From positions 1-64,000 of the forward strand of contig NZ_AP018721.1 of NCBI RefSeq assembly GCF_003967275.1: a stretch of DNA of 64,000 nucleotides. Reading direction: 5' to 3'. This document shows, piece after piece, positions 8,240-60,173 of the stretch. The position numbers and the translations under genes were made by a program. Position 1 is the first letter of the stretch; each line of letters starts with the position of its first letter. Origin of the DNA: Sulfuritortus calidifontis (GTDB lineage Bacteria; Pseudomonadota; Gammaproteobacteria; Burkholderiales; Thiobacillaceae). The notes under the pieces are model-generated. The model was given only the letters and a program-made list of their open reading frames with translations, did not search any database and was not told where the DNA came from.

Positions 8240-8526
8240 TGCGCCGCCGGATTCTCAAGTATCCAGCGGCGCGGCCCTGCGATGTGGGCGGCCCGGCCCT
8301 GCCGCATATCCAGGTGGCGGACGAGGACGACCCGGCGGCCGAGACGGCAACCGACATTTTTTACACCTCCCGGCGCGGCCAGCAGGCGGCCGAGCGGATC
8401 GCGCGCGAGATCGCGGCGTGCGGGGTTGCGCTGGTGTATCCGTGCGAGCGCGACGTGGAGGTGTTCGTCGGGCCGCTGCATCGGGTGATCGCCATCGGCG
8501 AGCGCGTGGAGGCGTGCGATGAGTGA
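8236..8526 (+). CDS. Early prophage protein, unknown function
   Basis: A 96-aa protein overlapping both the Ner-like gene before it and the transposase gene after it, so translation is probably coupled. No known domain is recognised. The middle (DIFYTSRRGQQAAERIAREI) is helical and charged. It starts at ATG 8236 or 8239. Being placed directly before the transposase suggests a role in early regulation, but this is position only. Confidence 0.65.
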   Translation: MMRRRILKYPAARPCDVGGPALPHIQVADEDDPAAETATDIFYTSRRGQQAAERIAREIAACGVALVYPCERDVEVFVGPLHRVIAIGERVEACDE

Positions 8527-10699
8527 TCTGGTCGATCTAGCCGCCATCGCCGATGCGGTTGGTGCTTCGTACAGGACTGTTTCTGAGAACTGGGCCACCT
8601 CCCCAGACTGGCCGCCGCACCACGACCGGGCGGGCCTGGGCGGGGCGAAGCGCTGGCGTGTCGAGGACTTGCCGACGGCCTTCAAGCGGCGCGGGAAGGT
8701 GGTCGATGTGCGGCAGGCGGTGGAGCGCTATTTGATCGAGCAGCAGGCGGCGGCGATTTCCGCTACGCCAAATGTAGCTGTTGCTACGCCAAATGTAGCT
8801 CCCCTTCCCGCCCCCAGCGGCGAGCCTACCGATGGGGTGCGCTCCTGCCCCGCTTCCGCGCCCGCCAGCGCGGGCGGTGGGCTCGCCGGTGGGGGTTTCG
8901 GCGCCTTGGCCGGAGGCGCCAGCGAGTATCCGGCTGTTGCCTCCTCCCTTCCCGGCGCGATGCCGGGTTTGCCGGGCGGCGCGGCGGGTGCGCCTGCCGT
9001 CCGCCCGGCGTCTTTTTCTGATGAGGAACTTGTAAGGATTTCTGATCACTTGGCTACGCGACCGCAGCGGGTGCGCGAGGAGGCGATGCGTCGGGCGCGG
9101 GTGTGCCTGACCGTGAAGCGCTGGATGGCGGCAGGACTCTCCGCGACTGAGGCGATCGCGCAGGCGGCGCGGGAGCATGGGGTCTCGAAGGGGACGCTGG
9201 CGCGCTGGTGGTGGGGGGATAGGCGCTTGCCTGGGGTGGCGGGGATCGAGAACGTGGCGGCGTGGGCGGGCTTGCTTGCGCCGCGCTGGGGGATGAAGGA
9301 GCACGAGGCGCCGATGCCGGAGGCGGCGTGGCGGCAGCTTTTGGCGCTGTGGCTGAGGCCGGAGAAGCCGAGCCTGCGGATGTGCTATCGGCAGGTGCAG
9401 AGGATGGCGCAGCAGCACGGCTGGCGGCTGCCGAGCTTTGCTTCGGTGGCGCGGCGGGTGCAGCGGCTGCCCAAGCCGCTGGTGGTGCTGCAGCGGGAAG
9501 GCAAGGAGGCTTACGACCGGCTGTGGCCGCCGATGAAACGGTCGGTGGCGCATCTTGCGGCGCTGGAGTGGGTGAATGCGGACGGGCACCGGCTGGATGT
9601 GTTCGTGCGGCTGCCGGAGCGCTTCGGCGGCGGCATCGAGCGGGTGCATCTGGTGGCCTGGCAGGACATCTACAGCCGGAAGATTCTGGCGTGGCGGCTG
9701 ACGCCGACCTTGAACGCCTACAGCGTGATCCTCTCCTTTGCCGATCTGGTGACGGAATACGGCGTGCCGGATCACGCCTTGATGGACAACGGACGGGAGT
9801 TCGGCGCGAAGTGCGTGTCTGGAAAGGCGCAGTGGCGCTTCCGTTTCAAGGCGGCCGAGGATGAGATGACGGGCATCCTGCCTTTGCTTGGCGTGGATGT
9901 GCACTGGGCGACCCCGTTTCACGGGCAGGCGAAGCCGATCGAGCGGGCTTTCCGCGATCTGGCGGAGGCGATTTCAAAAGACCCGCGTTTGGCTGGGGCT
10001 TACACGGGCAATAAACCGGATGCAAAGCCGGAGAACTATGGCTCGAAGGCGGTGGAGTGGGCGCTGCTTGAGCAGGTGGTGCGCGAGGCGATTGCCGAAC
10101 ACAACGCGCGCACGGGGCGACGCACGGAGACGGCCAAGGGCGCGAGCTTCGATGCGGTATTCGCCGAGTCTTTCGGCCGCCGGGTGGTCAAGCGGCTGGC
10201 GCCGAGCCAGCGGGCGATGCTGCTGCTCGCCTCGGAGCCCGTGACGGTGCGGCAAAACGGCACGTTCGAGGTGGCGGGCAATACCTACGGTATCGACCCG
10301 CGCCTGGGGCTGGCGGGCAAGCGGATCGTGGCGCGGTTCGACCCGGACGACCTCAAGAAGCCGGTGATGGTGTTCTCGCTCGATGGGCGGCTGCTGGGCG
10401 AGGCCGCGCCCACGGTGCGGCGCTTCGACGACCAGGCGGCGGCGCAGAGCTTCAAGCGCGAGCAGCGGCGGGCGAAGCGGGCGTATCGCGAGCACATGGC
10501 GTCGCTGGAAAAGCTGGCCGGGATGGAGATTCCGGCGGCGGTGGCGGCTGGCGATGTGCCAGCGCCTGCGGCGGTGCGCATGGTGCAGCCGATGGTTCCA
10601 GAGCGTGAGCGGGATGAGGATGTGGAGGCGCTGGTGGCGAAGGCCGACGCCTTTATTTTGGAGATGAGCCGCCTGACGGCAGCCGGCGGCGGGGTGTGA
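8519..10699 (+). CDS. Mu-type DDE transposase (MuA-like)
   Basis: A 726-aa transposase for integration and replicative transposition of the phage. The N-terminus has a winged-helix DNA-binding domain (AIADAVGASYRTVSENWATS). Residues 80-165 form an Ala/Gly/Pro-rich linker. End-binding HTH domains follow (KGTLARWWWGD; LRMCYRQVQRMAQQHGWRLP). The catalytic core shows D355 (VNADGH), D423 (LMDNGREFG) and E475 (KPIERAFRD), spacing D-67-D-51-E, close to MuA. The C-terminal domain and Arg/Lys-rich tail fit the MuB-interacting part. It overlaps the preceding gene by 8 bp. Confidence 0.95.
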   Translation: MSDLVDLAAIADAVGASYRTVSENWATSPDWPPHHDRAGLGGAKRWRVEDLPTAFKRRGKVVDVRQAVERYLIEQQAAAISATPNVAVATPNVAPLPAPSGEPTDGVRSCPASAPASAGGGLAGGGFGALAGGASEYPAVASSLPGAMPGLPGGAAGAPAVRPASFSDEELVRISDHLATRPQRVREEAMRRARVCLTVKRWMAAGLSATEAIAQAAREHGVSKGTLARWWWGDRRLPGVAGIENVAAWAGLLAPRWGMKEHEAPMPEAAWRQLLALWLRPEKPSLRMCYRQVQRMAQQHGWRLPSFASVARRVQRLPKPLVVLQREGKEAYDRLWPPMKRSVAHLAALEWVNADGHRLDVFVRLPERFGGGIERVHLVAWQDIYSRKILAWRLTPTLNAYSVILSFADLVTEYGVPDHALMDNGREFGAKCVSGKAQWRFRFKAAEDEMTGILPLLGVDVHWATPFHGQAKPIERAFRDLAEAISKDPRLAGAYTGNKPDAKPENYGSKAVEWALLEQVVREAIAEHNARTGRRTETAKGASFDAVFAESFGRRVVKRLAPSQRAMLLLASEPVTVRQNGTFEVAGNTYGIDPRLGLAGKRIVARFDPDDLKKPVMVFSLDGRLLGEAAPTVRRFDDQAAAQSFKREQRRAKRAYREHMASLEKLAGMEIPAAVAAGDVPAPAAVRMVQPMVPERERDEDVEALVAKADAFILEMSRLTAAGGGV

Positions 10700-24938: not shown

Positions 24939-24944
24939 AACATC

Positions 24945-25691
24945 ATGGCCATCGATACCCAGTATTACAGCTTCCAGGGCATCGTCACGCTCGGCACTGC
25001 CGGCAGCAACGCGCTGGAGGAATACGAGGTCGGCAACTGCCCCGCCTTGTCCGTCGATCTTCAGGTGGAGACCATCGAGCACACCGAGAGCTGGTCCGGC
25101 CAGCGCATGACCGATCTGCGCCTCATCAAGGCCAAGAAGGCCAGCATCAAGATGACGCTTGAGAGCTTCAGCCTGGACAATCTGGCGCTCGGGCTCTATG
25201 GGCAGACACTCACCCGCGCTGCCGGCACCGTCACCGCCGAGTCGCTCGGCACGGTGGTGGCCGGCATGGTCTACCCGCTCGCCAACCCGGTCGGCGTCTC
25301 GTCCGTGGTGGTCAAGGACGGCGCGGATGCGACCGTGCCGGCCACGAAATACGAGCTGGATGCCACCTTTGGCGCGGTCAAGGTGCTCGACACCACCGGC
25401 ACCACCATGCCGTGGAAGGTGGACTATGCCTACGGCAGCGCTAAAAACGTGGGCATGTTCCTGGTCAATCCGCCCGCGCGGCGGCTGCGCCTGCGCGGCG
25501 TGAACACCGCGAAGTCGAATGCGCCGGTGCTGGTGGAGCTCTACAAGGTGCAGTTCGACCCGATCAAGAACCTTGCGCTGATCCAGGACGATCTGGGCAA
25601 GCTGGAGTTCGAGGGCTCGGTGCTGGCCGATCCCACGAAGGCCACCGATCCGATGCTCGGCATGTTCGGGCGGGTGGTGATGGCGGGGTAA
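24945..25691 (+). CDS. Major tail tube protein
   Basis: A 248-aa beta-rich protein with an AAGGAG site. Parts include YSFQGIVTLGTAGSNALEEY, VETIEHTESWSGQRMTDLRL, ASIKMTLESFSLDNLALGLY and a C-terminal ELYKVQFDPIKNLALIQDDL, EFEGSVLADP. This is the usual fold and place of siphovirus tail tube subunits, upstream of the tail chaperones and tape measure. Confidence 0.8.
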   Translation: MAIDTQYYSFQGIVTLGTAGSNALEEYEVGNCPALSVDLQVETIEHTESWSGQRMTDLRLIKAKKASIKMTLESFSLDNLALGLYGQTLTRAAGTVTAESLGTVVAGMVYPLANPVGVSSVVVKDGADATVPATKYELDATFGAVKVLDTTGTTMPWKVDYAYGSAKNVGMFLVNPPARRLRLRGVNTAKSNAPVLVELYKVQFDPIKNLALIQDDLGKLEFEGSVLADPTKATDPMLGMFGRVVMAG

Positions 25692-25694
25692 GCG

Positions 25695-25961
25695 ATGAGT
25701 GATCGCACCATCGAGCCTGTCTCCGTGGCCGACCGTGCCGGCTACGGCCTGGCAGGTTGCCCGGATTGCCATTGGGCCAGCGTCGGGGCCGATCCCGCCC
25801 CGTTCGACTGGATGTGCCATGCGCCTCTGGTGGTGGCCATGCTCGACGGCAACGCGGCCACGCCTTGTCGCTACGCGCGGGAGTTCTCTACCGTGTGCGG
25901 CGCGCAGGGTCGATTCTTTCGCGCGCGCGAGGGCGGGATCAATGGCTGTCTTGCGGTTTAA
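25695..25961 (+). CDS. Small cysteine-rich prophage protein
   Basis: An 88-aa protein. Its first residues (IEPVSVADRA) copy the start of the tail chaperone at 26144 (LEPVSVADLP). The rest has a C-x2-C...C...C...C pattern (LAGCPDCHWAS; WMCHAP; TPCRYAREFSTVCGAQGRFF) like small zinc-binding phage proteins. It seems to sit in a short insert between tube and chaperone genes. Confidence 0.55.
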   Translation: MSDRTIEPVSVADRAGYGLAGCPDCHWASVGADPAPFDWMCHAPLVVAMLDGNAATPCRYAREFSTVCGAQGRFFRAREGGINGCLAV

Positions 25962-26145
25962 ACAGTTGACAGCGGCTGCTTGCCCACGCGCCGCAGGCGC
26001 GTCTGTGCGAGCAGTCGATCGGCCTGTCCATGATGAAATCGATCTGCCGCTTACCTGTCATGCTTTCCGTGTGCTCGATGCGACGAAACGTCACGGTCAC
26101 GTTAGCGGCGGTCGTGGCGCAATCAATCATCCGGTCATGAATCAT
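25939..26145 (-). CDS. Possible small minus-strand protein
   Basis: A 68-aa frame starting MIHDRMIDCATTAANVTVTF. It includes RRIEHTESMTGKRQIDFIMD, whose IEHTES-x2-G-x-R part copies the tail tube segment IEHTESWSGQR at both DNA and protein level. It runs against the tail operon and overlaps two plus-strand genes, so it may be a fragment moved and inverted from a tail gene rather than an expressed gene. Confidence 0.3.
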   Translation of the reverse strand: MIHDRMIDCATTAANVTVTFRRIEHTESMTGKRQIDFIMDRPIDCSHRRACGAWASSRCQLFKPQDSH

Positions 26146-26515
26146 GAATCCAAGTCTACCTGAAACATTAGAACCCGTCTCCGTCGCCGACCTGCCGGCT
26201 TTTCTCAAGGCCATCGAACCCATCGCTGCCGAGATCGCATCGGGCGACATCATGGGTGCGCTGCTGCGCCATGCCGATGCCGTGATCGAGGCTACCGCCA
26301 TCGGCGCCAGAGTGGATCGCGCCTGGCTTGGCGCGCAGAAACCGGACGTGCTGGTGGAGCTCGCCTCCCGCGTGCTGGAGGTGAACTGGGATTTTTTCGT
26401 CCAGCGCGTGCTGCCCGCGATCAATCAGGCGGCCGAGCGGCTGGCGCGGATCGTCTCTGGTGGCACGAGTGGGTCGCCCGACTCGTCGGCGCAGGATTCG
26501 ACTACGCAGCCGTGA
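26144..26515 (+). CDS. Tail assembly chaperone, first frame
   Basis: A 123-aa helical acidic protein (VADLPAFLKAIEPIAAEIAS; LVELASRVLEVNWDFFVQRV). It occupies the slot between tail tube and tape measure, where siphoviruses and Mu-like phages encode a chaperone pair joined by frameshifting. Its last 19 residues (from SGGTSG) lose protein-like character while the -1 frame becomes coding, see the 26515 entry. Confidence 0.7.
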   Translation: MNPSLPETLEPVSVADLPAFLKAIEPIAAEIASGDIMGALLRHADAVIEATAIGARVDRAWLGAQKPDVLVELASRVLEVNWDFFVQRVLPAINQAAERLARIVSGGTSGSPDSSAQDSTTQP

Positions 26516-26664
26516 TGAAGATGCCGTGGACGCTGGCGCGCGATTTCGCCGAAGCCGTGGTGCGGATCGAGCGCGAGAAGCTCCTCGCAGCGGCGGTGGC
26601 GGCGCGGGCCGCGCAGGCGGATGAAAAGGGGTGGGAGAAGTGGCTGAAGGCGGTCAGCGCATGA
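26515..26664 (+). CDS. Tail assembly chaperone, second frame
   Basis: A 49-aa frame starting MKMPWTLARDFAEAVVRIER that is open upstream with coding-like residues (WHEWVARLVGAGFDYAAV) overlapping the end of the first frame. The two are offset by -1. It can be made by a TGATG restart or, more likely, as a fusion by -1 frameshifting around 26440-26465, as with lambda G-GT. No canonical slippery heptamer is obvious. Confidence 0.65.
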   Translation: MKMPWTLARDFAEAVVRIEREKLLAAAVAARAAQADEKGWEKWLKAVSA

Positions 26665-26860
26665 ACAGGATGCGGCCGAGCATCCTCGGCCAGCGCCAGC
26701 CGACGCCTTCGGCGATGCCGAGCACGATGCCCAGGATGAGCACGCAAGCCCACGTCATGACGATCCAGCCAAGGCCGCCTGCCCACAGCAGGAAGGCTGC
26801 CGCAGGCATGGCGACGAGCAGCGCGCCCGTGAAAAGACCGGAGAGGATGGACTGACACAT
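26654..26860 (-). CDS. Small two-helix membrane protein on the minus strand
   Basis: A 68-aa protein starting MCQSILSGLFTGALLVAMPA with two hydrophobic helices (LLVAMPAAAFLLWAGG; WIVMTWACVLILGIVLGIAE) and a basic tail. It fills the 195-bp gap between chaperone and tape measure genes, where no good plus-strand frame exists. No ribosome site is evident, so expression is uncertain. Confidence 0.45.
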   Translation of the reverse strand: MCQSILSGLFTGALLVAMPAAAFLLWAGGLGWIVMTWACVLILGIVLGIAEGVGWRWPRMLGRILFMR

Positions 26861-29800
26861 GGCGACCGATACTACCATCGCCATCCGCCTCGCGCTAGAG
26901 GGCAACCAGCGTGTCAAGGCCGCGCTGCGCGACGTCGAATCGCAGTCCGACCGGCTTGCTCAGGCGCTGCGCCGCATCGGTCATTACGGCGCAGCCGCTT
27001 TTGCGTTTTCGGGTCTCAACAACAGCCTGTCCGGCCTTGCGCAACTGGCCGATCAAGTGCAGGCGGTCAATGCGCGGCTCAAGCTTTCCACGGACGGCCT
27101 GCGCGAATTCGTCGCCGCGCAGCAGTTGGCCTACCGGGTCGCGGCGCAGACGGGCGCGGGCTACGAGGCGGTGGCCACGCTCTACACGCGGCTCGCGCAG
27201 GGCGCGCGCGGCTTCGGTCTCACGCAGGAACAAGTGGCGCGCACCACGGAGGCGACCGCGCTGGCGCTCAAGGTCTCAGGCGCTTCAGCGGCCGAGGCCT
27301 CCTCCGTCATCCGCCAGTTTTCCCAGGCGCTGGGCGCGGGCGCGCTGCGTGGCGACGAGTTCAATTCCATCATGGAGAACGGCGGGCGGCTCGCCCAGGC
27401 GCTGGCCGATGGCCTTGGCCTGCCGATCGGCCGCCTGCGCGAGCTGGCCGAGCAGGGTCTGCTCACCACGGACATCATCACGCGCGCGCTCGAATCGCAG
27501 CGGCAGAAACTAGCCGACGAAGCCGCGCGCATGCCAAATACGATAGGCCAGTCGCTCTCCGAGGTGCGCGACCAGTTTAGCCGCGTGGTCGATGAGTTCA
27601 ATCGGGCGACGGGCGCGACGGCGGGGCTGGCCAGCGGCTTCTCGGCGCTGGCGCAGCACATGCAGACGGCGCTGGGGGTGGCGGGTGTCGCCGCCGCCGG
27701 GGCCATGACGGCCGCCATCGTGCGCGGCGCGCAGGCGGCGCGCACAGCCATCGGCGAGATGCTGGCGAAGATCGCCGCCGACCGGCAGGCGGCGATTTCG
27801 GCTCAGGCCGTGACCGCCCACGAGGTGGCCAAGGCACAGGCCATGCTTGCGTCAGCCAATGCAGCGGTCGCCGCATCGAGCGGCATGGCGCGTCTTTCCG
27901 TCGTGCAGACGCAACTTGTCCCGGCGCAGCAGCGGCTCGCCGCCGCTCAGGCGGCGCACAATGCGGCGATGGCCGCCGGAACCGGCATCACGCGCGGCCT
28001 GTCCGCGGCGCTTGGCCTGGTCGGCGGCCCGCTCGGCCTGATACTCACGCTGCTCACCGCCGGAGCGACGGCCTGGGCCATCTGGGGCGATCGCGCGAAA
28101 TCGTCGGCTGACAAAGCCAGGGACGCCATCGACGCGGCGCGTGAGGCCGCCGAGCGGCTGCGCAAAGAGGAGCGATTCGGCACGGGCGACGCCGCCATCT
28201 TCCGCGAGAGCATCGCCGCGCTGGAGCAAAAGGAGCGGCTGCTCAATGAGTCCGTGGCAAAGGCCGGTTCGAAGGCGGCCGCCGAGGAACTCAAGCGGGT
28301 GCGCGCAGAACTCGCCGCGCGCAAGGATGAACTTGCCAAGATCGAAGCGCGCGAAAAAGCGCTCGGCGGCCCTACCGTACTGGGCGCGGAACTGCTCGGC
28401 AAGCAGTTCGACCAGTACATCGACCAATATCGCAAGAAGCTCGACCCGCTTTCCGCCGCGCTCAAGGAGCTGCGTGAGCAGGCCGCGAAGGCCGGGATCG
28501 CGTTGAATTCCGATAAGTTCAAGCAAGCCGAGGCATTGGTGCGCAAGTCGTTCGAGAAAAGCGAAACCCGGCTGCCCTCCCTCGCCGATGCCTTCGACGC
28601 CGAACTCGCCCGCCTCAAGGACGGCTTGAAGACGGCCGAAAGCGTGATAGAAGCGTCCTACAAGGGCCGTTTTATCACCGAAGACCAGTACTGGCAGGCC
28701 AGGGCCGAAACCCAGCGCCGCGCGCTCGATCTGGAAGAGCGCGACCTCTCCGACAAGCTCGCCGCGCAGCAAGACCTGATCCGGCGGCTCTCCGCCGTGA
28801 AGCCAAAGGACGCCAAAGAGCAGGCCGAGATCGCAGACAAACTGCGCGAGGCGACCGGCAGGGCGGCTGAATTGCAGGCGCAGCTCGATGCCCTGAATGA
28901 CCGCCGGGTGGCGGTTGATCTGGCGATCCAGGTCGATCGCGCCAGGCTGGACAATGAACTGGCCGACATCAAGGCCAGGCTCGCACAGGAGTTCGCCCAG
29001 GCCACCGGCGCCGAGACGCCCGAGATGCGCCTGGCCGCCATCCGCCGCGAGTACGACGAGCTGCTCGCCCGCTTCGGCGACGACCCGGCCTTGCGCGAGC
29101 TGGTGGACAAGCTCGTGCCGGTCAAGGCCGCGCAGGCCAATCTCGCCGCGCTGGAAGCGAAGTGGCGCGAGGCCATCGAGCGCATGCGCCAGGCCCAGGA
29201 CAACGCCAACGTCTTGCAGCAGGCTGGCACGCTGACTCCCGCGCAGGCGCAGGCGCGCATCGAGGCCGCCGCGCGTGAGACCAAGGGCGCGCTGGAGGCG
29301 CTATTGCCCGACCTGGAAGCGGCCATGCGCACGCTCTTCCCGCCCGAGGAGGTGGCGCGGCGCATGGAGAACCTGCGCGCCGAGATTCTCAAGACCCAGC
29401 CGGTGGCCGATTCGCTGATGACCAAGGTCGCCGGGCAGATGCAGGATGCCTTCTCGACCGCCTTCGGCGACATCGTGACCGGCACGAAGAAGGTGTCGGA
29501 CGCCTTCCGCTCGATGGCGCAGTCCATCCTGCAGTCGCTGGCGCGCATCTTCGCGCAGCGGGCGGCGGAGCAGATATTTGGCTGGCTGTTCCCTTCCTTC
29601 GGCGGCGTGAAGAAAAACGCGCAAGGCGGCGTCTATAAGTCCGCATCGCTGGCGCAGTATGCCAACCGTATCGTCGCCGCGCCGACCTTGTTCACCTTCG
29701 CCGCCGGCGGCGTCCCGCGCCTGGGGCTGATGGGCGAGGCCGGGCCGGAGGCCATCATGCCGCTCAAACGCGGGCCGGATGGCAGGCTGGGCGTGGAGGC

Positions 29801-29966
29801 GCATGGGGCGGGCAATGTCGTGGTCAACGTCGCTGTCGACGCCTCCGGCTCGCGGGTCGAAGGCGATGCGGGCAGCGCGCGGCAACTCGGCGACATGATC
29901 GCCGGCGCGGTGCGCGGCATCCTGGTGGCGGAGAAGCGGCCCGGCGGGCTGCTGGCGGGGGCCTGA
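26859..29966 (+). CDS. Tail tape measure protein
   Basis: A 1035-aa protein that sets tail length and acts in DNA injection. The N-terminus holds the tape-measure domain (KLSTDGLREFVAAQQLAYRV; SSVIRQFSQALGAGALRGDE; FNSIMENGGRLAQALADGLG). A hydrophobic stretch lies near 385-410 (LSAALGLVGGPLGLILTLLT), then a long charged coiled coil to about 900. The C-terminus (AAGGVPRLGLMGEAGPEAIM, then PLKRGPDGRLGV) is the usual end of such proteins. Confidence 0.95.
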   Translation: MATDTTIAIRLALEGNQRVKAALRDVESQSDRLAQALRRIGHYGAAAFAFSGLNNSLSGLAQLADQVQAVNARLKLSTDGLREFVAAQQLAYRVAAQTGAGYEAVATLYTRLAQGARGFGLTQEQVARTTEATALALKVSGASAAEASSVIRQFSQALGAGALRGDEFNSIMENGGRLAQALADGLGLPIGRLRELAEQGLLTTDIITRALESQRQKLADEAARMPNTIGQSLSEVRDQFSRVVDEFNRATGATAGLASGFSALAQHMQTALGVAGVAAAGAMTAAIVRGAQAARTAIGEMLAKIAADRQAAISAQAVTAHEVAKAQAMLASANAAVAASSGMARLSVVQTQLVPAQQRLAAAQAAHNAAMAAGTGITRGLSAALGLVGGPLGLILTLLTAGATAWAIWGDRAKSSADKARDAIDAAREAAERLRKEERFGTGDAAIFRESIAALEQKERLLNESVAKAGSKAAAEELKRVRAELAARKDELAKIEAREKALGGPTVLGAELLGKQFDQYIDQYRKKLDPLSAALKELREQAAKAGIALNSDKFKQAEALVRKSFEKSETRLPSLADAFDAELARLKDGLKTAESVIEASYKGRFITEDQYWQARAETQRRALDLEERDLSDKLAAQQDLIRRLSAVKPKDAKEQAEIADKLREATGRAAELQAQLDALNDRRVAVDLAIQVDRARLDNELADIKARLAQEFAQATGAETPEMRLAAIRREYDELLARFGDDPALRELVDKLVPVKAAQANLAALEAKWREAIERMRQAQDNANVLQQAGTLTPAQAQARIEAAARETKGALEALLPDLEAAMRTLFPPEEVARRMENLRAEILKTQPVADSLMTKVAGQMQDAFSTAFGDIVTGTKKVSDAFRSMAQSILQSLARIFAQRAAEQIFGWLFPSFGGVKKNAQGGVYKSASLAQYANRIVAAPTLFTFAAGGVPRLGLMGEAGPEAIMPLKRGPDGRLGVEAHGAGNVVVNVAVDASGSRVEGDAGSARQLGDMIAGAVRGILVAEKRPGGLLAGA

Positions 29967-29967
29967 G

Positions 29968-30297
29968 ATGGCAGCGTGGGGCTGGCCCGTCGTCGCTGGC
30001 GAGCGCATGGAGATGAGCCCGCGCGTGCGCGTGACACGCTTCGGCGACGGCTACGAGCAGCGCGCGCCGGATGGCATCAACACCCTGCTGCGCAAGTGGA
30101 GCGTGCGCCTGGCGGCGGACGAGGCGACGGTCAAGGCGGCGGATGACTTCCTGCGCGCGCGCGCTGGCGTCGAGGCGTTCGACTGGACGGCGCTGGATCA
30201 CCTGCCCGGCAAGTGGGTGTGCCGATCCTGGAGCGTGTCATACGGGCCTGGCGGCGGCGCGGAGCTGGCCGCGACCTTCGAGGAGGTGGCGCTGTGA
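29968..30297 (+). CDS. Minor tail protein, lambda gpM-like
   Basis: A 109-aa protein with the gpM pattern: SPRVRVTRFGDGYEQRAPDG, LRKWSVRL, VEAFDWTALDHLPGKWVCRS and YGPGGGAELAATFEEV. It begins two bases after the tape measure stop and is the first of the M-L-K-I-J tail tip series. Confidence 0.88.
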   Translation: MAAWGWPVVAGERMEMSPRVRVTRFGDGYEQRAPDGINTLLRKWSVRLAADEATVKAADDFLRARAGVEAFDWTALDHLPGKWVCRSWSVSYGPGGGAELAATFEEVAL

Positions 30298-30983
30298 GCA
30301 TCCAGGCCGACATCCAGCAGGCCCAGCTTCCAGCCATCGTCGAGCTCTATGAGCTGGATACGACCGTCGTGGGCGGCATGGATGTGCTGCGCTTCACCCC
30401 GCACGGCCCGAACGAGCTGGGCGGCGACATCGTGTTCGGCGGGCTGACCTATACCAGCCTGCCAATCGAGGCCTCCGGCTTCGCGCGTTCCGGCCAAGGC
30501 GCGCTGCCGCGCCCGAAGCTGGCGGTCGCCAACGTCAGCGGGCTGGTGGGCGCGGTGGCCGACGATCTGATCGGCGCGAAGCTCATCCGCGAGCGCACGT
30601 TCATCAAGTATCTCGACGCGGTCAACTTCGCCGGCGGCAACCCGCAGGCCGACCCGAACCAGGTGATCGACCGCGAAATCTGGTTCGTCGATCGCAAGGC
30701 CACCGAGAACAAGCTGCTGGTGGAGTTCGAGCTGGCGGCGGCCTTCGACCTGGCCGGCGTGATGCTGCCGCGCCGCCAGTTCGTGCAGAACGTCTGCCCG
30801 TGGCGCTACCGGGGGCCGGAGTGCGGCTACACCGGCGGTGCGGTCGCCGACGAGAAAGACCAGCCGACCGCCGACCCGGCAAAAGACCGCTGCGGCAAGC
30901 GGCTCGCTTCCTGCAAGCTGCGCTTCGGGCCATACGCAGAACTCCCGTTCGGCGGCTTCCCTGCCGTGGGGCTGCTGCGATGA
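30294..30983 (+). CDS. Minor tail protein, lambda gpL-like
   Basis: A 229-aa protein whose GTG overlaps the preceding stop, with GGAGG upstream. It has the gpL features ELYELDTTVVGGMDVLRFTP, PRPKLAVANVSGLVGAVADD and a C-terminal cysteine set (NVCPWRYRGPECGYTGG, later CGKRLASCKLRF), which in lambda gpL holds an iron-sulfur cluster. Confidence 0.88.
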   Translation: MSIQADIQQAQLPAIVELYELDTTVVGGMDVLRFTPHGPNELGGDIVFGGLTYTSLPIEASGFARSGQGALPRPKLAVANVSGLVGAVADDLIGAKLIRERTFIKYLDAVNFAGGNPQADPNQVIDREIWFVDRKATENKLLVEFELAAAFDLAGVMLPRRQFVQNVCPWRYRGPECGYTGGAVADEKDQPTADPAKDRCGKRLASCKLRFGPYAELPFGGFPAVGLLR

Positions 30984-31690
30984 TGGATTTCTCGCCCATC
31001 TTGGATGACGTCCGCGAACACGCCGCGCGCGAAGCGCCGCGCGAGTGCTGCGGGCTGGCGGTGGTGGTCAAGGGCCGGTTGCGCTATTGGCCTTGCCGCA
31101 ACATCGCGGGCGAGGCCGAGTTCGCCATCCACCCGGAAGACCAGGCCGCGGCAGAAGACGCTGGCGAGGTGGTGGCTGTCTGCCACAGCCACGTGCATCT
31201 GCCGCCCGTGCCGTCCGAGGCTGATCGGGTGATGTGCGAGGCCACCGGGCTGCCGTGGTTGATCGTCTCGCATCCGGCTGGCACGCATGAGATGCTCGCG
31301 CCATCCGGCTACCGCGCGCCGCTCATCGGGCGGCCCTTCGTGCATGGTGTGCTCGACTGCTACGCGCTGTGCCGCGACTACTACCGCGAGGTGTGCGGCG
31401 TCACCCTGCCCGACTACCGGCGCGAGGACGACTGGTGGCTCAAGGGCGGCAATTTGTATCTCGACCACTTCGCCGAGGCCGGGTTTGTGGAGATCGCGCC
31501 CGATGCGCTCGGGCCACACGACGCGGTGCTGATGCAGATCGCCAGCCCCGTGCCCAACCACGCAGGCGTGATCGACGCCGACGGCTATCTCGTGCACCAC
31601 TGTCACGGCAGGCTCTCCAGCCGCGATGTCTATGGCGGCTATTGGCGCAAGGTGACCACCCACGTGCTGCGGCACAGGAGCATGGCATGA
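30980..31690 (+). CDS. Tail assembly protein K-like: JAMM plus NlpC/P60 peptidase
   Basis: A 236-aa protein. The N-terminal half is a JAB/MPN domain with E of REAPRECCGLAVV and the motif VCHSHVHLPPVPSEADR (HxH...SxxD). The C-terminal half is NlpC/P60 with the catalytic Cys in HGVLDCYALCRDYYREV and His in VPNHAGVID. It likely cuts peptidoglycan during tail assembly or entry. ATGATG start overlaps gpL. Confidence 0.9.
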   Translation: MMDFSPILDDVREHAAREAPRECCGLAVVVKGRLRYWPCRNIAGEAEFAIHPEDQAAAEDAGEVVAVCHSHVHLPPVPSEADRVMCEATGLPWLIVSHPAGTHEMLAPSGYRAPLIGRPFVHGVLDCYALCRDYYREVCGVTLPDYRREDDWWLKGGNLYLDHFAEAGFVEIAPDALGPHDAVLMQIASPVPNHAGVIDADGYLVHHCHGRLSSRDVYGGYWRKVTTHVLRHRSMA

Positions 31691-32289
31691 GGACGGTGCG
31701 GCTCTACGGCCATCTGGCCAAGCGCTTCGGGCGCGTGCACCGCTATGAGGTGCGCACGCCGGCCGAGGCCGTGCGCGCATTGTGTGCGACGCTGCCCGGC
31801 TTCCGGCAGCACGTGATCGAGCACTCCAGGCCAGGTTACCGCGTGCTCGATGGCAAGGTGGCGCGCGACATCGACACGCTGGCGCTGCCAGCCGATGGCG
31901 TGATCAAGATCGTGCCCGTGACGGCTGGCGCCGGGCGCGGGCTTGGAAGTGTCATCCTGGGAGCGGCATTGATCGCCGTTGGCGTCGCCACCGGCGGCTC
32001 CGGGCTGTCGCTTAGCGCAGCCTGGGCCGCAGGCGGCGCAACCTTCGCTGGAGCAATCGCGTTCAACGTCGGCATGTCTCTGGTACTGGGCGGCGTGGCG
32101 CAGATGCTCTCGCCGCAGCCCAAGACGCCAGGCGCGCCGGATCGTCCGGAAAACCGCCCATCCTACATCTTCGACGGGCCGGTCAACACCGCCGCGCAGG
32201 GCAACCCGGTGCCGGTGTGCTATGGGCGGCTCATCGTCGGCTCGCAGGTCATCTCCGCTGGCATGGCCGCCGAGGAGTACGCGGCATGA
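31687..32289 (+). CDS. Tail assembly protein I-like
   Basis: A 200-aa protein. The N-terminal ubiquitin-like part (VRLYGHLAKRFGRVHRYEVR; LPGFRQHVIEH) is followed by a Gly/Ala hydrophobic central region (LGSVILGAALIAVGVATGGS; GGVAQMLSPQ) and SYIFDGPVNTAAQGNPVPVC, all as in lambda gpI. ATG overlaps the gpK stop. Confidence 0.9.
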   Translation: MRTVRLYGHLAKRFGRVHRYEVRTPAEAVRALCATLPGFRQHVIEHSRPGYRVLDGKVARDIDTLALPADGVIKIVPVTAGAGRGLGSVILGAALIAVGVATGGSGLSLSAAWAAGGATFAGAIAFNVGMSLVLGGVAQMLSPQPKTPGAPDRPENRPSYIFDGPVNTAAQGNPVPVCYGRLIVGSQVISAGMAAEEYAA

Positions 32290-35270
32290 ACGATCTGATC
32301 GCGCGCGGCGCTGGCGGCGGCGGAGGCGGCAAGGGCGGAGGTGGCGGCTCTTCCCATGTGCCGACCGAGGCGCCGAACACCTTGCGCAGTCGCGCCTACG
32401 CGCGGGTGATCGATGTGCTCTCCGAGGGCGAGATCGAGGGCCTGGTCGATGGGCTCAAGAGCATCTATCTGGACGATACGCCGATCCAGTCCGCCGATGG
32501 CGCGATGAACTTTTCCGGGGTGTCGGTCGCCTGGCGCAATGGTCTGCCAGCGCAGAGCCATGTACCAGGCTTTCCCGCCGTCGAAAACGAGATCGCCGTG
32601 GCGACCGAGGTGAAGAATACCGCCCCGGTCGCGCGCGCCATCACCAACCCGAATCTCTCCGCCGTGCGCGTCACCGTCTCGGTGCCGCAGCTGTCCTACC
32701 AGAATCCCTCCAATGGCGATCTGTCTGGCACGTCTGTCGAGATCGCCATCGACATCGACAACGCCGGCGGCGGCTGGCAGGAAGTCAGGCGCGACACCAT
32801 CAGCGGCAAGACCATGAGCCGCTACCAGCGCAGCTACCGCATCGACCTGCCGCAGCCCGGCCCGTGGCAGGTGCGCGTGCGGCGCATCACGCCTGATTCC
32901 ACGCAGGCCAACATGCAAAACAAGACCTTCTGGGACAGCTACACCGAGATCATCGACTCGAAGCTGCGCTATCCGAACTCGGCGCTGGTGGCGCTCCAGA
33001 TCGACGCGGCGCAGTTCAATCGCATCCCACGCCGGGGCTACGACATCCTGGGCCTGCGCGTGCGCGTGCCGGTCAACTACGATCCGATCGCCCGCAGCTA
33101 CAGCGGCGTGTGGAACGGCGCTTTCAAGATCGCCTGGACGGACAACCCGGCCTGGTGCTTTTACGACCTGTTGACCTCAGAGCGCTACGGCCTGGGCCAG
33201 TATCTCGACGCAAGCCAGATCGACCAGTGGGCGCTCTACGAGATCGCGCGCTACTGCGACGAGCGCTTGCCGGACGGCTTCGGCGGCACCGAGCCGCGCT
33301 TTACATGCAACATCTATTTGCAGACGCGACAAGAGGCCTTTACCGTCATCCAGCAGATGGCCGCGATCTTCCGCGGCATGACGTGGTGGGCGAATGGAAC
33401 GCTCACCTGCTCGCAGGACGCGCCCGCCGATCCGGTGGCGCTGTTCACGGCGGCGAACGTGGTCGATGGGCTGTTCACCTACTCCGGCAGCTCGGCGAAG
33501 CAGCGCCACACAGTGGCGCTGGTGACCTGGAACGATCCGGCCGACATGTACCGGCAGAAGGTCGAATACGTCGAAGACGAGGACGGCATCCGCCGCTTCG
33601 GCGTGCGCGAGACCGAGATCGTTGCGGTGGGCTGCACCTCGCGCGGCCAGGCGCATCGCGTGGGCCGCTGGCTGCTCTACACCGAGCGCATGGAGACCGA
33701 GACGGTCACCTTCCGCGCCGGTCTCGATGCCGCGCTGGTGTGGCCGGGCGCGGTGATCGCGGTGCAAGATGCCGCGCGCGCCGGTGTGCGCTTCGGCGGG
33801 CGCGTGATGGCGGCGACCACGGAGAGCGTGACGCTCGACTCTCCGGTCACGATCGAGCCCGGCAATAGCTACACGCTCTCGGTCATGCTGCCCGATGGCA
33901 CGGTGGGTAGCGGCGCGGTGGCGAACTCGCCCGGCGAGACGACGGTTCTCAACCTGTCCTCCGCGCTGCCTGCCGCGCCTGTGACGGGCGCGGTGTGGGT
34001 GCTTGCCGCCTCTGATCTGGCGCCCACGCTATGGCGCGTGATCGGCATCCGTGAGGTAGACGGCCACCAGGTCGAGGTGACCGCGCTCGCGCATCAGCCC
34101 GGCAAGTACGACGCCATCGAGCGCGACATCGTGCTGGAGCCTGCGCGCACCACGCTGCTCGGCGATGGGCCAGCGCCGCAGGTCGATCTCACCGTCACCG
34201 AGTCGCTCTATCTACTCAACCCGGCGGTGGTGGCTGGCAGAGCAACGCTGTCCTGGACGGGATCGGCCTCTCGATACGAGGTGCGCTGGACGAGGGCAGA
34301 CGGCCAGTCAGGCACGGCGACTACCGACGCGCCGTCGCTCGACATCGCGCCCATCGAGCCGGGCATCTACGACTTCTCCGTCGTCGCGGTGGATGCGCTG
34401 GGCCGCCGCTCCGCTGCCGCCACGGCGCGTCGCGAGATTTACGGCATCACCGCCGCGCCGCAGGATGTGCATGGCTTTACCGCGCGGCCGATGGCGGGGC
34501 TCGCCTTCGCCTCGTGGGATCGCGCCACCGATCTCGATGTGCTGGTCGGCGGCGACATCGAAATCCGCTGGTCGCCGCTCACCTCTGGCGCGACATGGCA
34601 TGATGCCGTGGTGCTGCCTGACGGCGCGCACAACGGCAGCGCGAGCAACGCGGTCGTCTCGCTCGCTCAAGGCACATACTTCGCCAAGTTCGTCGACTCC
34701 GGCGGTCGCCACTCGGCCAATGCCGCCAGCTTCGTGATGACCGAGGCGATTCTGACCGGCTTCCAGACCGTGGCCACGAGCGTGCAGCATCCGGCCTTCG
34801 CCGGCGCGAAGACCGGCGTCTATCTCGACGGCGGCGCGATCCGGCTCGCCAACCAGACCGACATCGACGATTACGGCGCGATAGACGATCAGCCGGACAT
34901 CGACACCGTGGGCGGCATCGCATCGACCGGCGAATACGCCTTCGACGCCGTGCTCGATCTCGGCTCATCCGCAGCAAGGCGCTTCCAGGCTCATATCGCG
35001 GCGCTGTCCTACGATGCCGCCGACCTGATCGATACCCGCACCCAGTCGGTTGACGACTGGCTCAACGTGCATGGCGACATCGACGACTGCACGGCGACCG
35101 TCTTCGCCTCCCTCTCGGATGACGGCATCGCCTGGGGGCCGTGGACGCCGTTTCTCACGGCCGATTTCACCGGGCGCTACGCGCGCTTCAAATGCGTGCT
35201 GGAGTCAGGATCGCCAGCGCACAACATCGCCGTCTCGGAACTTGCCGTGGCGGCCAAGATACCCGTGTAA
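32286..35270 (+). CDS. Tail tip / host specificity protein J-like
   Basis: A 994-aa central tip protein. The Gly-rich start (ARGAGGGGGGKGGGGGSS) leads to LSEGEIEGLVDGLKSIYLDD, IYLQTRQEAFTVIQQMAAIF and RGMTWWANGTLTCSQDAP, the conserved gpJ core. Fibronectin-like segments follow (about 640-800), then a C-terminal part with SSAARRFQAHIAALSYDAAD. The C-terminal region usually decides receptor binding. Confidence 0.92.
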   Translation: MNDLIARGAGGGGGGKGGGGGSSHVPTEAPNTLRSRAYARVIDVLSEGEIEGLVDGLKSIYLDDTPIQSADGAMNFSGVSVAWRNGLPAQSHVPGFPAVENEIAVATEVKNTAPVARAITNPNLSAVRVTVSVPQLSYQNPSNGDLSGTSVEIAIDIDNAGGGWQEVRRDTISGKTMSRYQRSYRIDLPQPGPWQVRVRRITPDSTQANMQNKTFWDSYTEIIDSKLRYPNSALVALQIDAAQFNRIPRRGYDILGLRVRVPVNYDPIARSYSGVWNGAFKIAWTDNPAWCFYDLLTSERYGLGQYLDASQIDQWALYEIARYCDERLPDGFGGTEPRFTCNIYLQTRQEAFTVIQQMAAIFRGMTWWANGTLTCSQDAPADPVALFTAANVVDGLFTYSGSSAKQRHTVALVTWNDPADMYRQKVEYVEDEDGIRRFGVRETEIVAVGCTSRGQAHRVGRWLLYTERMETETVTFRAGLDAALVWPGAVIAVQDAARAGVRFGGRVMAATTESVTLDSPVTIEPGNSYTLSVMLPDGTVGSGAVANSPGETTVLNLSSALPAAPVTGAVWVLAASDLAPTLWRVIGIREVDGHQVEVTALAHQPGKYDAIERDIVLEPARTTLLGDGPAPQVDLTVTESLYLLNPAVVAGRATLSWTGSASRYEVRWTRADGQSGTATTDAPSLDIAPIEPGIYDFSVVAVDALGRRSAAATARREIYGITAAPQDVHGFTARPMAGLAFASWDRATDLDVLVGGDIEIRWSPLTSGATWHDAVVLPDGAHNGSASNAVVSLAQGTYFAKFVDSGGRHSANAASFVMTEAILTGFQTVATSVQHPAFAGAKTGVYLDGGAIRLANQTDIDDYGAIDDQPDIDTVGGIASTGEYAFDAVLDLGSSAARRFQAHIAALSYDAADLIDTRTQSVDDWLNVHGDIDDCTATVFASLSDDGIAWGPWTPFLTADFTGRYARFKCVLESGSPAHNIAVSELAVAAKIPV

Positions 35271-35279
35271 GGAGATGAC

Positions 35280-36740
35280 ATGGCGCAACATGACTATCTG
35301 ATCGACAACCAGCCAGGCGTTGCCTTCCGCGCCGACCTCAACGCGGCGCTCGCCGCCATCGTGAGCAACAACGCCGGCGCGACCGAGCCGGCGACGACCT
35401 ATCCCTATCAGTGGTGGGCCGACACCACCAGCGGCAAGCTCAAGCTGCGCAACGCCGCCAATACCGGCTGGATCGAGGTGGGAAGCTTGAGCGACCCGAA
35501 TCTCGGCCTCGCACTCAAGGGTGCGATCACATCCTCCGGTCTCACCCAGTCCTCCGGCAAGCTGCTCGGTCGCGCGTCGAGCGGCGACGGCGCGGTAGAA
35601 GAGATCAGCGTCGGGAGCGGGCTGTCGTTGACAGGTGTGGTCCTGAGCGCATCCGGCGTGCCGGTCGGCAGTATCATCTATACGTCTAGCAAAACGCCGC
35701 CGTCTGGGTTTTTACGCTGCAACGGGCAGGAGGTGAGCCAGACTACATACGCGGAGTTGTATGCCGTTGTCGGCGATACTTACAACTACACGCGCAACGT
35801 GTATGTCAACGGGAAGCCGCACAGACAGCAGTATTGGGAAAACACTACGCAGAATGCGGATATTACTGGATGGACGACCGGCACGAGCCTGCCAGGAGCG
35901 TTGTACGCTTCTCAAGCCATCGTCACGAACAGCAGAGTATATCTGCTCGGCGGCTATGTCAGCAGTGCTGTAAGCACTGTCTACACTGCGCCGATCAATC
36001 CGGACGGTACGCTAGGCGCATGGACGACCGGCACGAGCCTGCCAGGAGCGTTGTACGCTTCTCAAGCCATCGTCACGAACAGCAGAGTATATCTGCTCGG
36101 CGGCTATGTCAGCAGTGCTGTAAGCACTGTCTACACTGCGCCGATCAATCCGGACGGTACGCTAGGCGCATGGACTACCGGAACGAGCCTGCCAGGGGCG
36201 TTAAGCCGTCCTCAAGCCATCGTCACGAACAGCCTAGTATATTTGCTCGGCGGCGATAACGGCGGTTCCGTAAGCACTGTCTACACTGCGCCGATCAATC
36301 CGGACGGTACGCTAGGCGCATGGACGACCGGAACGAGCCTGCCAGTGGCGTTAAGCCTTTCTCAAGCCATCGTCACCAACAGCCGAGTATATCTGCTCGG
36401 TGGTTATGTCAGCAGTGCTGTAAGCACTGTCTACACTGCGCCGATCAATCCGGACGGTACGCTAGGCGCATGGACTACCGGAACGAGCCTGCCAGGGGCG
36501 TTAAGCATTTCTCAAGCCATCGTCACCAACAGCCGAGTATATCTGCTCGGTGGTTATGTCAGCAGTGCTGTAAGCACTGTCTACACCGCTTCGTTTTCAG
36601 GCGGGCTTAACGATTATTTAACCCCGCATAAGTCCTACATCGCGCAGAACCCGTCAACTGGAAACTTCTACTTGCCAAACGTTGGGCCAGAAGCAACTTA
36701 CTACGGCGAAGACGCGATTTACGCACACATCAAATACTAA
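35280..36740 (+). CDS. Tail fibre with collar domain and Kelch-like repeats
   Basis: A 486-aa fibre. The N-terminus joins the tail tip. Residues 128-165 form the start of a phage tail-collar domain (VPVGSIIYTSSKTPPSGFLR, CNGQEVSQTTYAELYAVVGD). The domain is then interrupted by five 50-residue Kelch-like repeats (SRVYLLGGYVSSAVSTVYTA), which would fold as a beta-propeller, and resumes near the C-terminus (NPSTGNFYLPNVGPEATYYG). It is the likely receptor-binding protein. AT-richer codons in the repeats suggest separate origin. Confidence 0.85.
   Translation: MAQHDYLIDNQPGVAFRADLNAALAAIVSNNAGATEPATTYPYQWWADTTSGKLKLRNAANTGWIEVGSLSDPNLGLALKGAITSSGLTQSSGKLLGRASSGDGAVEEISVGSGLSLTGVVLSASGVPVGSIIYTSSKTPPSGFLRCNGQEVSQTTYAELYAVVGDTYNYTRNVYVNGKPHRQQYWENTTQNADITGWTTGTSLPGALYASQAIVTNSRVYLLGGYVSSAVSTVYTAPINPDGTLGAWTTGTSLPGALYASQAIVTNSRVYLLGGYVSSAVSTVYTAPINPDGTLGAWTTGTSLPGALSRPQAIVTNSLVYLLGGDNGGSVSTVYTAPINPDGTLGAWTTGTSLPVALSLSQAIVTNSRVYLLGGYVSSAVSTVYTAPINPDGTLGAWTTGTSLPGALSISQAIVTNSRVYLLGGYVSSAVSTVYTASFSGGLNDYLTPHKSYIAQNPSTGNFYLPNVGPEATYYGEDAIYAHIKY
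35871..36596 (+). repeat. Tandem 150-bp repeats in the tail fibre gene
   Basis: Units begin at 35871, 36021, 36171, 36321 and 36471 (last one partial, about 125 bp). Units 1 and 2 are identical over all 150 bp; units 4 and 5 are nearly so; unit 3 differs most. In-frame length means copy number can change by recombination without breaking the gene. Confidence 0.95.
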
Positions 36741-36749
36741 GGGGGCGCC

Positions 36750-37247
36750 ATGATCTATTACGCTTTCAATCCAATCACTCGTCGATATAGCGGTGAGACC
36801 GAGTCCGAAGGTTGTCCCACGTTCGCTACAGCTACGGCCCCGCACCGCCCAGACGCGGTTTACGACGTCATCCACCGTGTGTGGGTCGATCCGCCTGATA
36901 CCACGCCGTCCATTGCCGAAGTCAAAGCCGCCAAGAAGCTCCAGATCGAAGCCGAGCGCGACGCGCAGTGCGTGGCGAACGTCACTGTCAACGGCCACGT
37001 GTGGCAGGCAGACAAGCGCAGCCAAGAGCTACTCGGCCAAGCCATCTCGCTTGCGCAAGCCGGGCTCCCGCTGCCGTCGGTATGGCGTGACGCAGACAAC
37101 AACGACGTGCCTGTCACGTCCATCGCAGACTTGCTCGCCATCGCTGGCGTGATCGCGCAGCAGGTGCAGACTGCCTACTCCACGTCATGGGCGCGGAAGG
37201 CTGCGCTTGAGGCCGCGACGACGATCGAAGAGGTGAATGCGGTATGA
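36750..37247 (+). CDS. Tail fibre assembly-like protein (DUF4376-like)
   Basis: A 165-aa protein with GGGGGCG before the ATG. The N-terminus (MIYYAFNPITRRYSGETESE) and C-terminal helices (ERDAQCVANVTVNGHVWQAD, KRSQELLGQAISLAQAG) match the DUF4376-type fibre chaperones that follow fibre genes. It would help fold or trimerise the fibre. Confidence 0.75.
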   Translation: MIYYAFNPITRRYSGETESEGCPTFATATAPHRPDAVYDVIHRVWVDPPDTTPSIAEVKAAKKLQIEAERDAQCVANVTVNGHVWQADKRSQELLGQAISLAQAGLPLPSVWRDADNNDVPVTSIADLLAIAGVIAQQVQTAYSTSWARKAALEAATTIEEVNAV

Positions 37248-37507
37248 GATGGCGTGTGCTCAATCTCCTGATAGCGCTCGACCAACTTGCCTGGGTGTTG
37301 CTCACGCTCGGCAACGGCAGCCCGGACGAGACGATTAGCGCGGCAGCGTACCGGATGGAGCGCCAGGGCAAGCTCGCCGGCCGCATCCTGCGCCCGCTGA
37401 TCGACGCTATCTTCCGCCCGGTCGAGCGCGATCACTGCCGCCGGAGCTACGCGTCCGAGATAGCCGGCTCACAGCTACCGGATAGCTACCGTGCACGCAT
37501 TACATGA
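37244..37507 (+). CDS. Small prophage protein at the right end
   Basis: An 87-aa protein starting MRWRVLNLLIALDQLAWVLL with GNGSPDETISAAAYRMERQG. This pattern is widespread in tailed-phage tail regions with unknown role. It overlaps the fibre chaperone by ATGA and is the last gene before the right terminus. Confidence 0.7.
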   Translation: MRWRVLNLLIALDQLAWVLLTLGNGSPDETISAAAYRMERQGKLAGRILRPLIDAIFRPVERDHCRRSYASEIAGSQLPDSYRARIT

Positions 37508-37535
37508 GATGCGCGTCGTCGCATGGAATGTGAGC

Positions 37536-37641
37536 ACGCCTAGCTAGGCGTCTCATCTGGTATGCGAATTTTATCTCATACCATATGAGACGATTCGCAA
37601 ACCTTTCGAGACACCAATTGCAAACTAGTTGCGACATTACA
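37536..37641. promoter_or_regulatory. Prophage right end with transposase sites
   Basis: Holds the perfect palindrome ACGCCTAGCTAGGCGT (37536-37551), the inverted repeat TCTCATA/TATGAGA (37574-37590) and, at the tip, a site (minus strand TGTCGCAACT at 37627-37636) shared with the left end at 6687. Recurrent GTCTC and TGCGAAT elements suggest several MuA-type contacts. Confidence 0.6.
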
Positions 37642-60014: not shown

Positions 60015-60173
60015 GGGTGCTTGCCGTCTTGAAAAGGGATGCGCGAAAAGCCGAATATCGTCATGCCGGCGCAAGCCGGAATCCAGCTCGAATCATAGAC
60101 TGGATGCCTGCCTGCGGGGGCATGACAAGGCCAACTTAAGAGTAGTTGCTGATTGTACAGTTCCCCCTCCCGA

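What the first reader, a model, noticed from the sequence alone, without database searches (positions are those of the whole stretch)
35280..36740. Beta-propeller repeats nested inside a tail-collar domain, with recently duplicated units
Five 50-residue Kelch-like units interrupt the collar domain between its GDTYN and NFYLPN parts. Units 1 and 2 are identical for all 150 bp, a sign of very recent duplication, and in-frame period allows gain or loss of blades. This may be a host-range variation device that needs no reverse transcriptase or invertase. Propellers normally have six to eight blades, so the count may vary between virions, or trimers may share blades.
Basis: partly seen in the sequence, partly recalled or inferred. 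Interest (0 to 1): 0.68.

Follow-up and report, generated by a model that had tools for sequence, protein, structure and literature searches.

The report
Six-bladed phage fibre missing one blade
A prophage tail-fibre gene carries a ring-shaped binding domain built from near-identical repeats; relatives nearly always have six repeats, this copy most likely lost one, and the repeats differ mainly at the presumed target-binding face.

Summary
ORF 35280-36740 carries five 150-bp Kelch units nested in a split tail-collar domain; units 1 and 2 are identical. The host genome shows what five means: a second prophage has the same gene with SIX units, and over 6.47 kb the two differ only by one whole unit and one substitution, both inside the array. 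Among 37 collar-nested propellers in 27 proteins (motif-scored, several from the same phages), 34 have six units, one has six split by an insert, the window copy five, one four. The six-unit AlphaFold model matches six-bladed Kelch domains well; the five-unit model is clearly worse. So six is the usual number and the window copy is most likely a one-blade deletion. What varies is the face rather than the count: in the sister array amino-acid changes concentrate in two loops, near where Keap1 binds its ligand, while the framework changes mostly silently. A third prophage with the same fibre anchor carries a diversity-generating retroelement instead. Receptor binding is inferred. New variant of a known kind.

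The parts
35280..36740 (+). tail-fibre gene, 486 aa: anchor, collar part 1, five Kelch units, collar part 2
   Evidence: downstream of a lambda-J-like tip protein (phrog_31)
35280..35654 (+). N-terminal anchor (aa 1-125), shared with prophages B (100%) and C (82-84%)
   Evidence: DNA homology to prophage C ends at 35624
35667..35789 (+). first part of the tail-collar domain (PF07484 positions 1-41)
35868..36617 (+). array of five 150-bp Kelch units (six in the sister copy; the unit matching sister unit 4 is absent)
35870..36025 (+). stretch identical at a lag of 150 bp (units 1 and 2), identical in the sister prophage too
36618..36740 (+). linker and second part of the collar domain (NFYLPN) to the C terminus
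36507..36507 (+). only substitution against the sister copy in the 6.47 kb shared block; Ile/Leu in hypervariable column 13
30846..37318 (+). block identical to prophage B except for one unit and one substitution
32217..35270 (+). lambda J-like tail tip protein just upstream
36750..37247 (+). DUF4376 protein, matches tail-fibre PHROGs, just downstream
8519..10699 (+). Mu-type transposase of the same prophage
   Evidence: phrog_310 E 2.1e-116

Best explanation
The gene encodes the distal tip of a tail fibre of a Mu-like prophage with a lambda-like tail tip. A Kelch beta-propeller sits in a loop of the collar domain, so both its ends enter the collar and the opposite face should point outward. 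The usual form has six blades. The face that Kelch proteins use for binding (the loop before the first strand and the hairpin after Gly-Gly) is where the units differ most. Units are copied and lost by recombination between identical stretches of about 90-156 bp. The window copy is most likely a one-unit deletion derivative of the six-unit sister form. Shown: nesting, five against six, six as the usual number, the position of variation. Predicted: the fold. Inferred: receptor binding, outward face, ring closure by the strand before the array, recombination as cause, direction of the change (loss), weaker function of the five-unit form.
For: Sister prophage with six units and otherwise one substitution over 30846-37318. 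Of 37 propellers in 27 collar-nested proteins, 34 have six units. Six-unit model pLDDT 84.5, pTM 0.75, best Z 30.9 (rmsd 2.3, 277 aligned) against Kelch domains; five-unit model with the same 15 sequences pLDDT 73.6, pTM 0.63, best Z 21.0 (rmsd 3.6, 225 aligned). The eleven most variable columns of six other arrays, 9-13 and 29-34, hold 8 of the 10 amino-acid-variable columns of the sister array and 1 of its 9 silent-only columns (hypergeometric 1e-5; Fisher 0.0055). In Keap1 a ligand lies on the side opposite the termini and touches hairpins after the Gly doublet plus Asn414 and Arg415 (PMC4506958 passages). Sister units form neighbouring pairs 1-2, 3-4, 5-6 with 0, 3 and 5 mismatches in 122 nt against 12-19 between pairs.
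Against: No binding partner, virion or infection data. L079, a four-unit collar-nested array whose longest exact internal repeat is 23 bp, is hard to explain as assembly collapse, so six is not absolute. The 24 six-unit proteins come from ten viral contigs plus this genome, several per contig and some shared between contigs, so they are far fewer than 24 independent cases. The number of columns (eleven) was set, which included the sister array. Pairwise counts are not independent, and nearly saturated loops look non-synonymous under mere relaxation too, so diversifying selection is not formally shown. The five-unit model may suffer from an alignment with a 50-residue gap.
Confidence: 0.68

Rival explanations
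1. Unit number itself is the switch: blades are gained and lost within a phage population and each count gives another host range.
For: 5 against 6 in sister prophages, 4 in L079 and 4 in L052; of the five arrays with mean internal DNA identity of at least 0.75, three have a count other than six.
Against: 34 of 37 collar-nested propellers have six units in a row and one more has six split by an insert; some of these proteins are identical in contigs of two samples; the other arrays are more diverged (mean identity 0.46-0.73) and less apt to recombine; the five-unit model is worse.
Confidence: 0.1
2. The five-unit array is an assembly or polishing error for six.
For: Units 1 and 2 share 156 bp and the two prophages share 6.47 kb, which can mislead assemblers; sequencing technology is unknown.
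Against: The genome is one contig of 2,720,636 bp, 100% complete; the missing unit is number 4, not one of the identical pair; one substitution also separates the arrays.
Confidence: 0.12
3. The window copy is a decaying gene: a neutral one-blade loss in a prophage that no longer needs its fibre, with no adaptive meaning. (This overlaps with the best explanation, which leaves the fate of the five-unit form open.)
For: Model of lower confidence; PMC9218822 (sections 16 and 18 read) treats some short forms as fragments and describes decay of young propellers.
Against: The frame is open to the end, the rest of the 6.47 kb block matches the sister copy, and transposase, MuB-like and head ORFs are present (intactness of the whole prophage was not tested).
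Confidence: 0.3
4. The propeller is an enzyme of the mutarotase or galactose-oxidase type acting on surface sugars rather than a plain binder.
For: Weak TIGR03548 match, 36.3 bits against a cut-off of 243.2; some viral relatives by fold are named galactose oxidase.
Against: Far below the cut-off; near-identical blades offer no obvious single active site; loops vary between units.
Confidence: 0.05

Closest known systems
Kelch beta-propellers (Keap1, KLHL12, LZTR1; designed SAKe6)
   Same: Gly-Gly after the second strand, six units, Z 28.6-30.9 for the 50 entries listed; variable columns lie near the Keap1 binding face.
   Different: Inserted in a phage tail-collar domain, blades nearly identical.
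Highly repetitive, recently amplified beta-propellers (Pereira and Lupas 2022, PMC9218822; passages and sections 16 and 18 read)
   Same: Blades more alike to each other than to other blades, gain and loss of blades, a preferred number.
   Different: Tail-fibre setting, a sister pair differing by exactly one blade in otherwise identical DNA, change concentrated on the presumed binding face. The word 'phage' does not occur in its main text (find).
Phage tail-collar fibres (PF07484)
   Same: Both halves of the collar are present and score together above the cut-off.
   Different: A whole propeller, or two to four of them, is inserted between the halves.
Diversity-generating retroelement tail fibres
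   Same: Same anchor and gene position as the retroelement fibre of prophage C in this genome.
   Different: No reverse transcriptase hit in prophages A and B and no template similarity.
Kelch proteins of giant phages such as CBB (PMC5259590, one passage read)
   Same: Kelch propellers in a phage, one of them found in the virion.
   Different: The passage mentions no collar nesting and no array turnover.
Uncultured Caudovirales collar protein A0A6J7W9V9 and other BFVD entries
   Same: Fold match to the six-unit model, named tail collar (rank 33, E 1.7e-10).
   Different: Low overlap (TM 0.30, 18% identity); not examined, so earlier deposition of an unnoticed relative is possible.

Membership tests
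Kelch beta-propeller | Kelch motif repeats at profile level | tested here: met
   PF01344 28.8 bits, cut-off 20.1, five stretches
Kelch beta-propeller | closed ring of four-stranded blades | tested here: met
   six-unit sister, predicted model only: Z 30.9, rmsd 2.3, 277 aligned; geometry not inspected directly
Kelch beta-propeller | closed ring in the five-unit window copy | tested here: inconclusive
   pLDDT 73.6, residues 51-67 of the model under 50, best Z 21.0
Phage tail collar (PF07484) | collar profile above the curated cut-off, both halves | tested here: met
   43.4 bits alone; 55.8 bits over 1-52 of 57 with the array left out; cut-off 24
Phage tail collar (PF07484) | trimeric fibre | not testable with these tools
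   only single chains were modelled
Highly repetitive beta-propeller | median internal protein identity above 60% | tested here: met
   mean DNA identity of blades 0.906; units 82-94% identical in protein to the first of six compared
Diversity-generating retroelement target | reverse transcriptase and template repeat for this gene | tested here: not met
   the one RVT_1 hit of the genome lies in prophage C; its retroelement has only 10-15 bp chance matches (E 3.8) to this gene
Repeat-number contingency locus | repeat number varies within one population | not testable with these tools
   no reads; variation seen only between two prophages

The most novel reading that the evidence does not exclude
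Phages have a protein-only counterpart to retroelement fibres: a closed six-blade scaffold nested in the collar whose blades are copied, swapped and lost while two loops per blade diversify on the outward face; fibres with this module and fibres with a retroelement target are exchanged on one and the same anchor within a single bacterial genome.
Probability: 0.35. Interest if true: 0.7.

Novelty: new variant of a known kind. Interest (0 to 1): 0.55.

Why it matters
It gives a natural pair of genes differing by one blade and one residue in 6.47 kb, which makes the question of how propellers keep their blade number directly testable, and it points to a family of collar-nested Kelch tips seen here in IMG/VR contigs, with only matches under 60% identity among 50,697 phage records, whose specificity may change by blade turnover without a dedicated mutator.

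Tried and rejected
Named phages and plasmids as relatives: tblastn of the window protein, the sister protein and a two-propeller relative found only matches under 60% identity (27, 75 and 5 phage records; 2 plasmid records for the window protein). Genomes near the host: 6 of 61 matched the whole protein, own included, the other five with best E from 5e-10 to 9e-6. In 369 genomes of the class 25 matched at E 1e-15, own included, the others with best E from 1e-37 to 7e-20; whether any of these is collar-nested was not examined. The anchor alone was found in 6 of 300 genomes of the order, own included. Further viral scans with L079, L052 and L060 gave no contig not already seen (their loci were not scored again). 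Of 13 loci brought by the anchor or collar alone (L037-L049) I read five ORFs (L037, L042, L047, L048, L049) and saw no Kelch unit; the others were not read. L080 was not followed.

A retroelement acting in trans on this array was considered and rejected (no template similarity). A rule that blades always resemble blades of the same protein was rejected: the nearest neighbour lies in the same protein for 50 of 235 units; it holds for the sister (6 of 6), L060 (6 of 6), L052 (4 of 4) and L051 (5 of 6), but only for 1 of 4 in L079, so the four units of L079 need not be a recent amplification. In the diverged arrays similarity hardly fell with distance between units (0.52 to 0.50), and three neighbour pairs as in the sister were not seen in the six other arrays compared.

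Rows dropped: truncated or duplicate ORFs of L031, L032, L073, L078 and the ORF of L081, ORFs contained in longer ones, and L037-L049 and L081 were not given. The collar marks are two text patterns of mine; Pfam Collar itself was run only on the window protein and on L079, L034 and L064, and matched in all four. Of 54 rows, 27 lack one or both marks: 13 have six units, L052 four, L091 (7256-9181) seven hits that I read by eye as six blades with one split in two, and 12 are fragments or distant forms with partial hits. In one search (44 rows) the rows under 0.75 identity that are not six are L058 (cut by the contig end), L072 (one propeller split 2 and 4) and L070 (five there, six).

Papers: searches. 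'tail collar' with 'kelch' gave none, 'diversity-generating retroelement' with 'tail fiber' and 'kelch' gave none; 'kelch', 'tail fiber', 'phage', 'propeller' gave two; of 23 papers, 20 were listed and seen as a listing only. The library lacks most subscription journals, so this does not show absence in print.

Full report
What is there. The ORF at 35280-36740 encodes a 486-residue tail-fibre protein right behind a lambda J-like tip protein in a prophage with Mu-type transposase and transposition genes. It has an N-terminal anchor, the first part of a tail-collar domain, five Kelch units of exactly 150 bp and the last part of the collar. Leaving the array out raises the collar match from 43.4 to 55.8 bits and extends it from profile position 40 to 52 of 57. 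The array (57.2% G+C) and the C-terminal part (48.0%) are poorer in G+C than the upstream tip gene (67.1%), and DNA homology to a third prophage stops at 35624. This suggests that the collar-propeller cassette was grafted onto the anchor; that is inference.

Five against six. The window is bases 1-64000 of a one-contig genome of 2.72 Mb. A second prophage, B, shares window 24724-37538 and carries the same gene with six units (536 aa). From window 30846 to 37318 the two are identical except for one whole 150-bp unit and one substitution, Ile/Leu at 36507. Both differences lie in the array, about 12% of the block. Outside it the match is patchy: 176 differing columns in the 500-bp bins from 28500 to 30845 and 12 in those from 25000 to 28499, so exchange between prophages is likely. 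Units 1 and 2 are identical in both copies. In B the units fall into neighbouring pairs 1-2, 3-4 and 5-6 with 0, 3 and 5 mismatches in 122 nt, against 12-19 between pairs, as if three blades had each been copied next to itself; local gene conversion would look the same. The window copy lacks B's unit 4; B has a 90-bp exact stretch at a lag of 150 bp across units 3-4 where such a loss could occur.

Six is the usual number. Scans of viral contigs (83-85 gave no new contig) and one of genome contigs brought relatives. In one search, 54 distinct ORFs had at least two unit hits, and 27 bear two motif marks of the collar, one on each side. These 27 hold 37 propellers: 34 of six units in 24 proteins (four propellers in L033, three in L066, two in five others, one in seventeen, the sister copy among them), L072 with six units split by an insert of about 490 residues, the window copy with five, and L079 with four. 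The 24 proteins lie on ten viral contigs and in this genome; one contig supplies five of them, others three or four, and some contigs share identical proteins, so the independent cases are fewer. Among complete arrays, counts other than six were seen only at high internal DNA identity: of five arrays with a mean of 0.75 or more the counts are 4 (L052, not collar-nested), 5, 6, 6 and 4 (L079). Collapse by an assembler is unlikely for L079 (longest exact internal repeat 23 bp) but possible for L052 (93 bp).

Structure. Modelled with the same 15 sequences, the six-unit protein gives pLDDT 84.5 and pTM 0.75, with ten-residue means of 82-96 over most of the propeller; the 50 entries listed by VIA-align 2, Kelch-type by their titles and by general knowledge, have Z 28.6-30.9 and rmsd 2.1-2.7 (Foldseek one search agrees). 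The five-unit protein gives 73.6 and 0.63, ten-residue means of 70-89 over most of the propeller, best Z 21.0 at rmsd 3.6. The stretch before the first unit is under 50 at residues 51-67 in the five-unit model and at 51-58 in the six-unit model, so only part of this is a difference. This fits a strained or open ring, but the alignment has a 50-residue gap for this query, and I could not inspect the coordinates.

What varies. In six arrays other than those of this genome, the eleven most variable columns of the unit are 9-13 and 29-34; in the remaining, more diverged arrays the top eleven are 9-13, 16, 29, 30 and 33-35. In the sister array 8 of 10 amino-acid-variable columns fall in the first set and 1 of 9 silent-only columns (hypergeometric p 1e-5, Fisher 0.0055); the set size was fixed, which included the sister. 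Pairwise counts in B are 69 changed and 12 silent of 150 inside those columns, 10 and 65 of 550 outside. L060 and L079 show the same contrast (126/3 inside against 76/146 outside; 48/4 against 16/63). L052 has 17/0 inside and 6/3 outside. In L051, L034 and L050 (128/10, 107/21, 103/26 inside) the outside counts are more balanced (141/140, 104/179, 107/187). Pairs are not independent, and saturated loops would look similar under relaxation. In Keap1 a ligand lies on the side opposite the chain ends and is touched by Tyr334, Arg336, Arg380, Asn382 and Arg483 in hairpins that go with the Gly doublet, and by Asn414 and Arg415 (passages of PMC4506958). By the model alignment end pairs column 29 falls on Tyr334 (ungapped reading); columns 12-13 fall on Asn414 and Arg415 by the recalled Keap1 sequence. 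Since both ends of the phage propeller enter the collar, the variable face should point outward (inference).

A sister with a retroelement. A third prophage, C, matches the window over G000 positions 2662.7-2695.5 kb and has the same anchor (82-84%) but another C-terminal part. Next to it lie a reverse transcriptase (81.7 bits, the one RVT_1 hit of the genome) and a 105-bp repeat of the gene's 3' end; 7 of the 9 differences are at adenines of the presumed template, the mark of a diversity-generating retroelement. So one anchor carries either a blade array or a retroelement target in the same genome.

Mechanism, what is shown and what is not. Shown: nesting, one-unit difference, six as the usual number, the place of variation. 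Predicted: the fold. Inferred: binding of a host receptor, outward face, recombination between units, loss rather than gain, lowered fitness of the five-unit form. Pereira and Lupas (PMC9218822; passages and sections 16 and 18 read) write that amplification has no counting system and that a new propeller is likely to converge rapidly on the preferred number; this gene pair is a clean natural case of such an excursion.

Verdict. Its reading is half right: blades come and go in frame and no reverse transcriptase is needed, but the number is mostly held at six, and the window copy looks like a loss rather than a setting of a switch.

Noticed in passing
L006 8553-11661 (minus strand; G000:C1 about 2663.5-2666.7 kb): Diversity-generating retroelement in a third related prophage: reverse transcriptase, template repeat and variable 3' end of a fibre gene with the same anchor as the window gene.
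   Followed up: partly
L033 1-4362: One fibre protein with four six-unit Kelch propellers in a row and collar marks at both ends (the ORF is cut at the contig start); L066 has three propellers, five other proteins have two.
   Followed up: partly
L072 2181-5414: A propeller itself interrupted after its second unit by about 490 residues with internal repeats of their own, a nest within a nest.
   Followed up: no
L031, L053, L055, L071, L101, L103: Several Kelch fibre genes stand side by side in one phage contig (three in L071, three in L053).
   Followed up: no
L052 579-7442: Four nearly identical Kelch units inside a 2288-residue protein without collar marks; units 1 and 3 are most alike (0.99) and the longest exact repeat lies at a lag of two units.
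   Followed up: partly
window 7414-7501: Short tandem repeats of a TTCCCGCAGTT core near the start of the Mu-like prophage genes.
   Followed up: no
window 60164-60294: A 57-bp unit repeated 2.3 times at 95% matches, far from the prophage.
   Followed up: no
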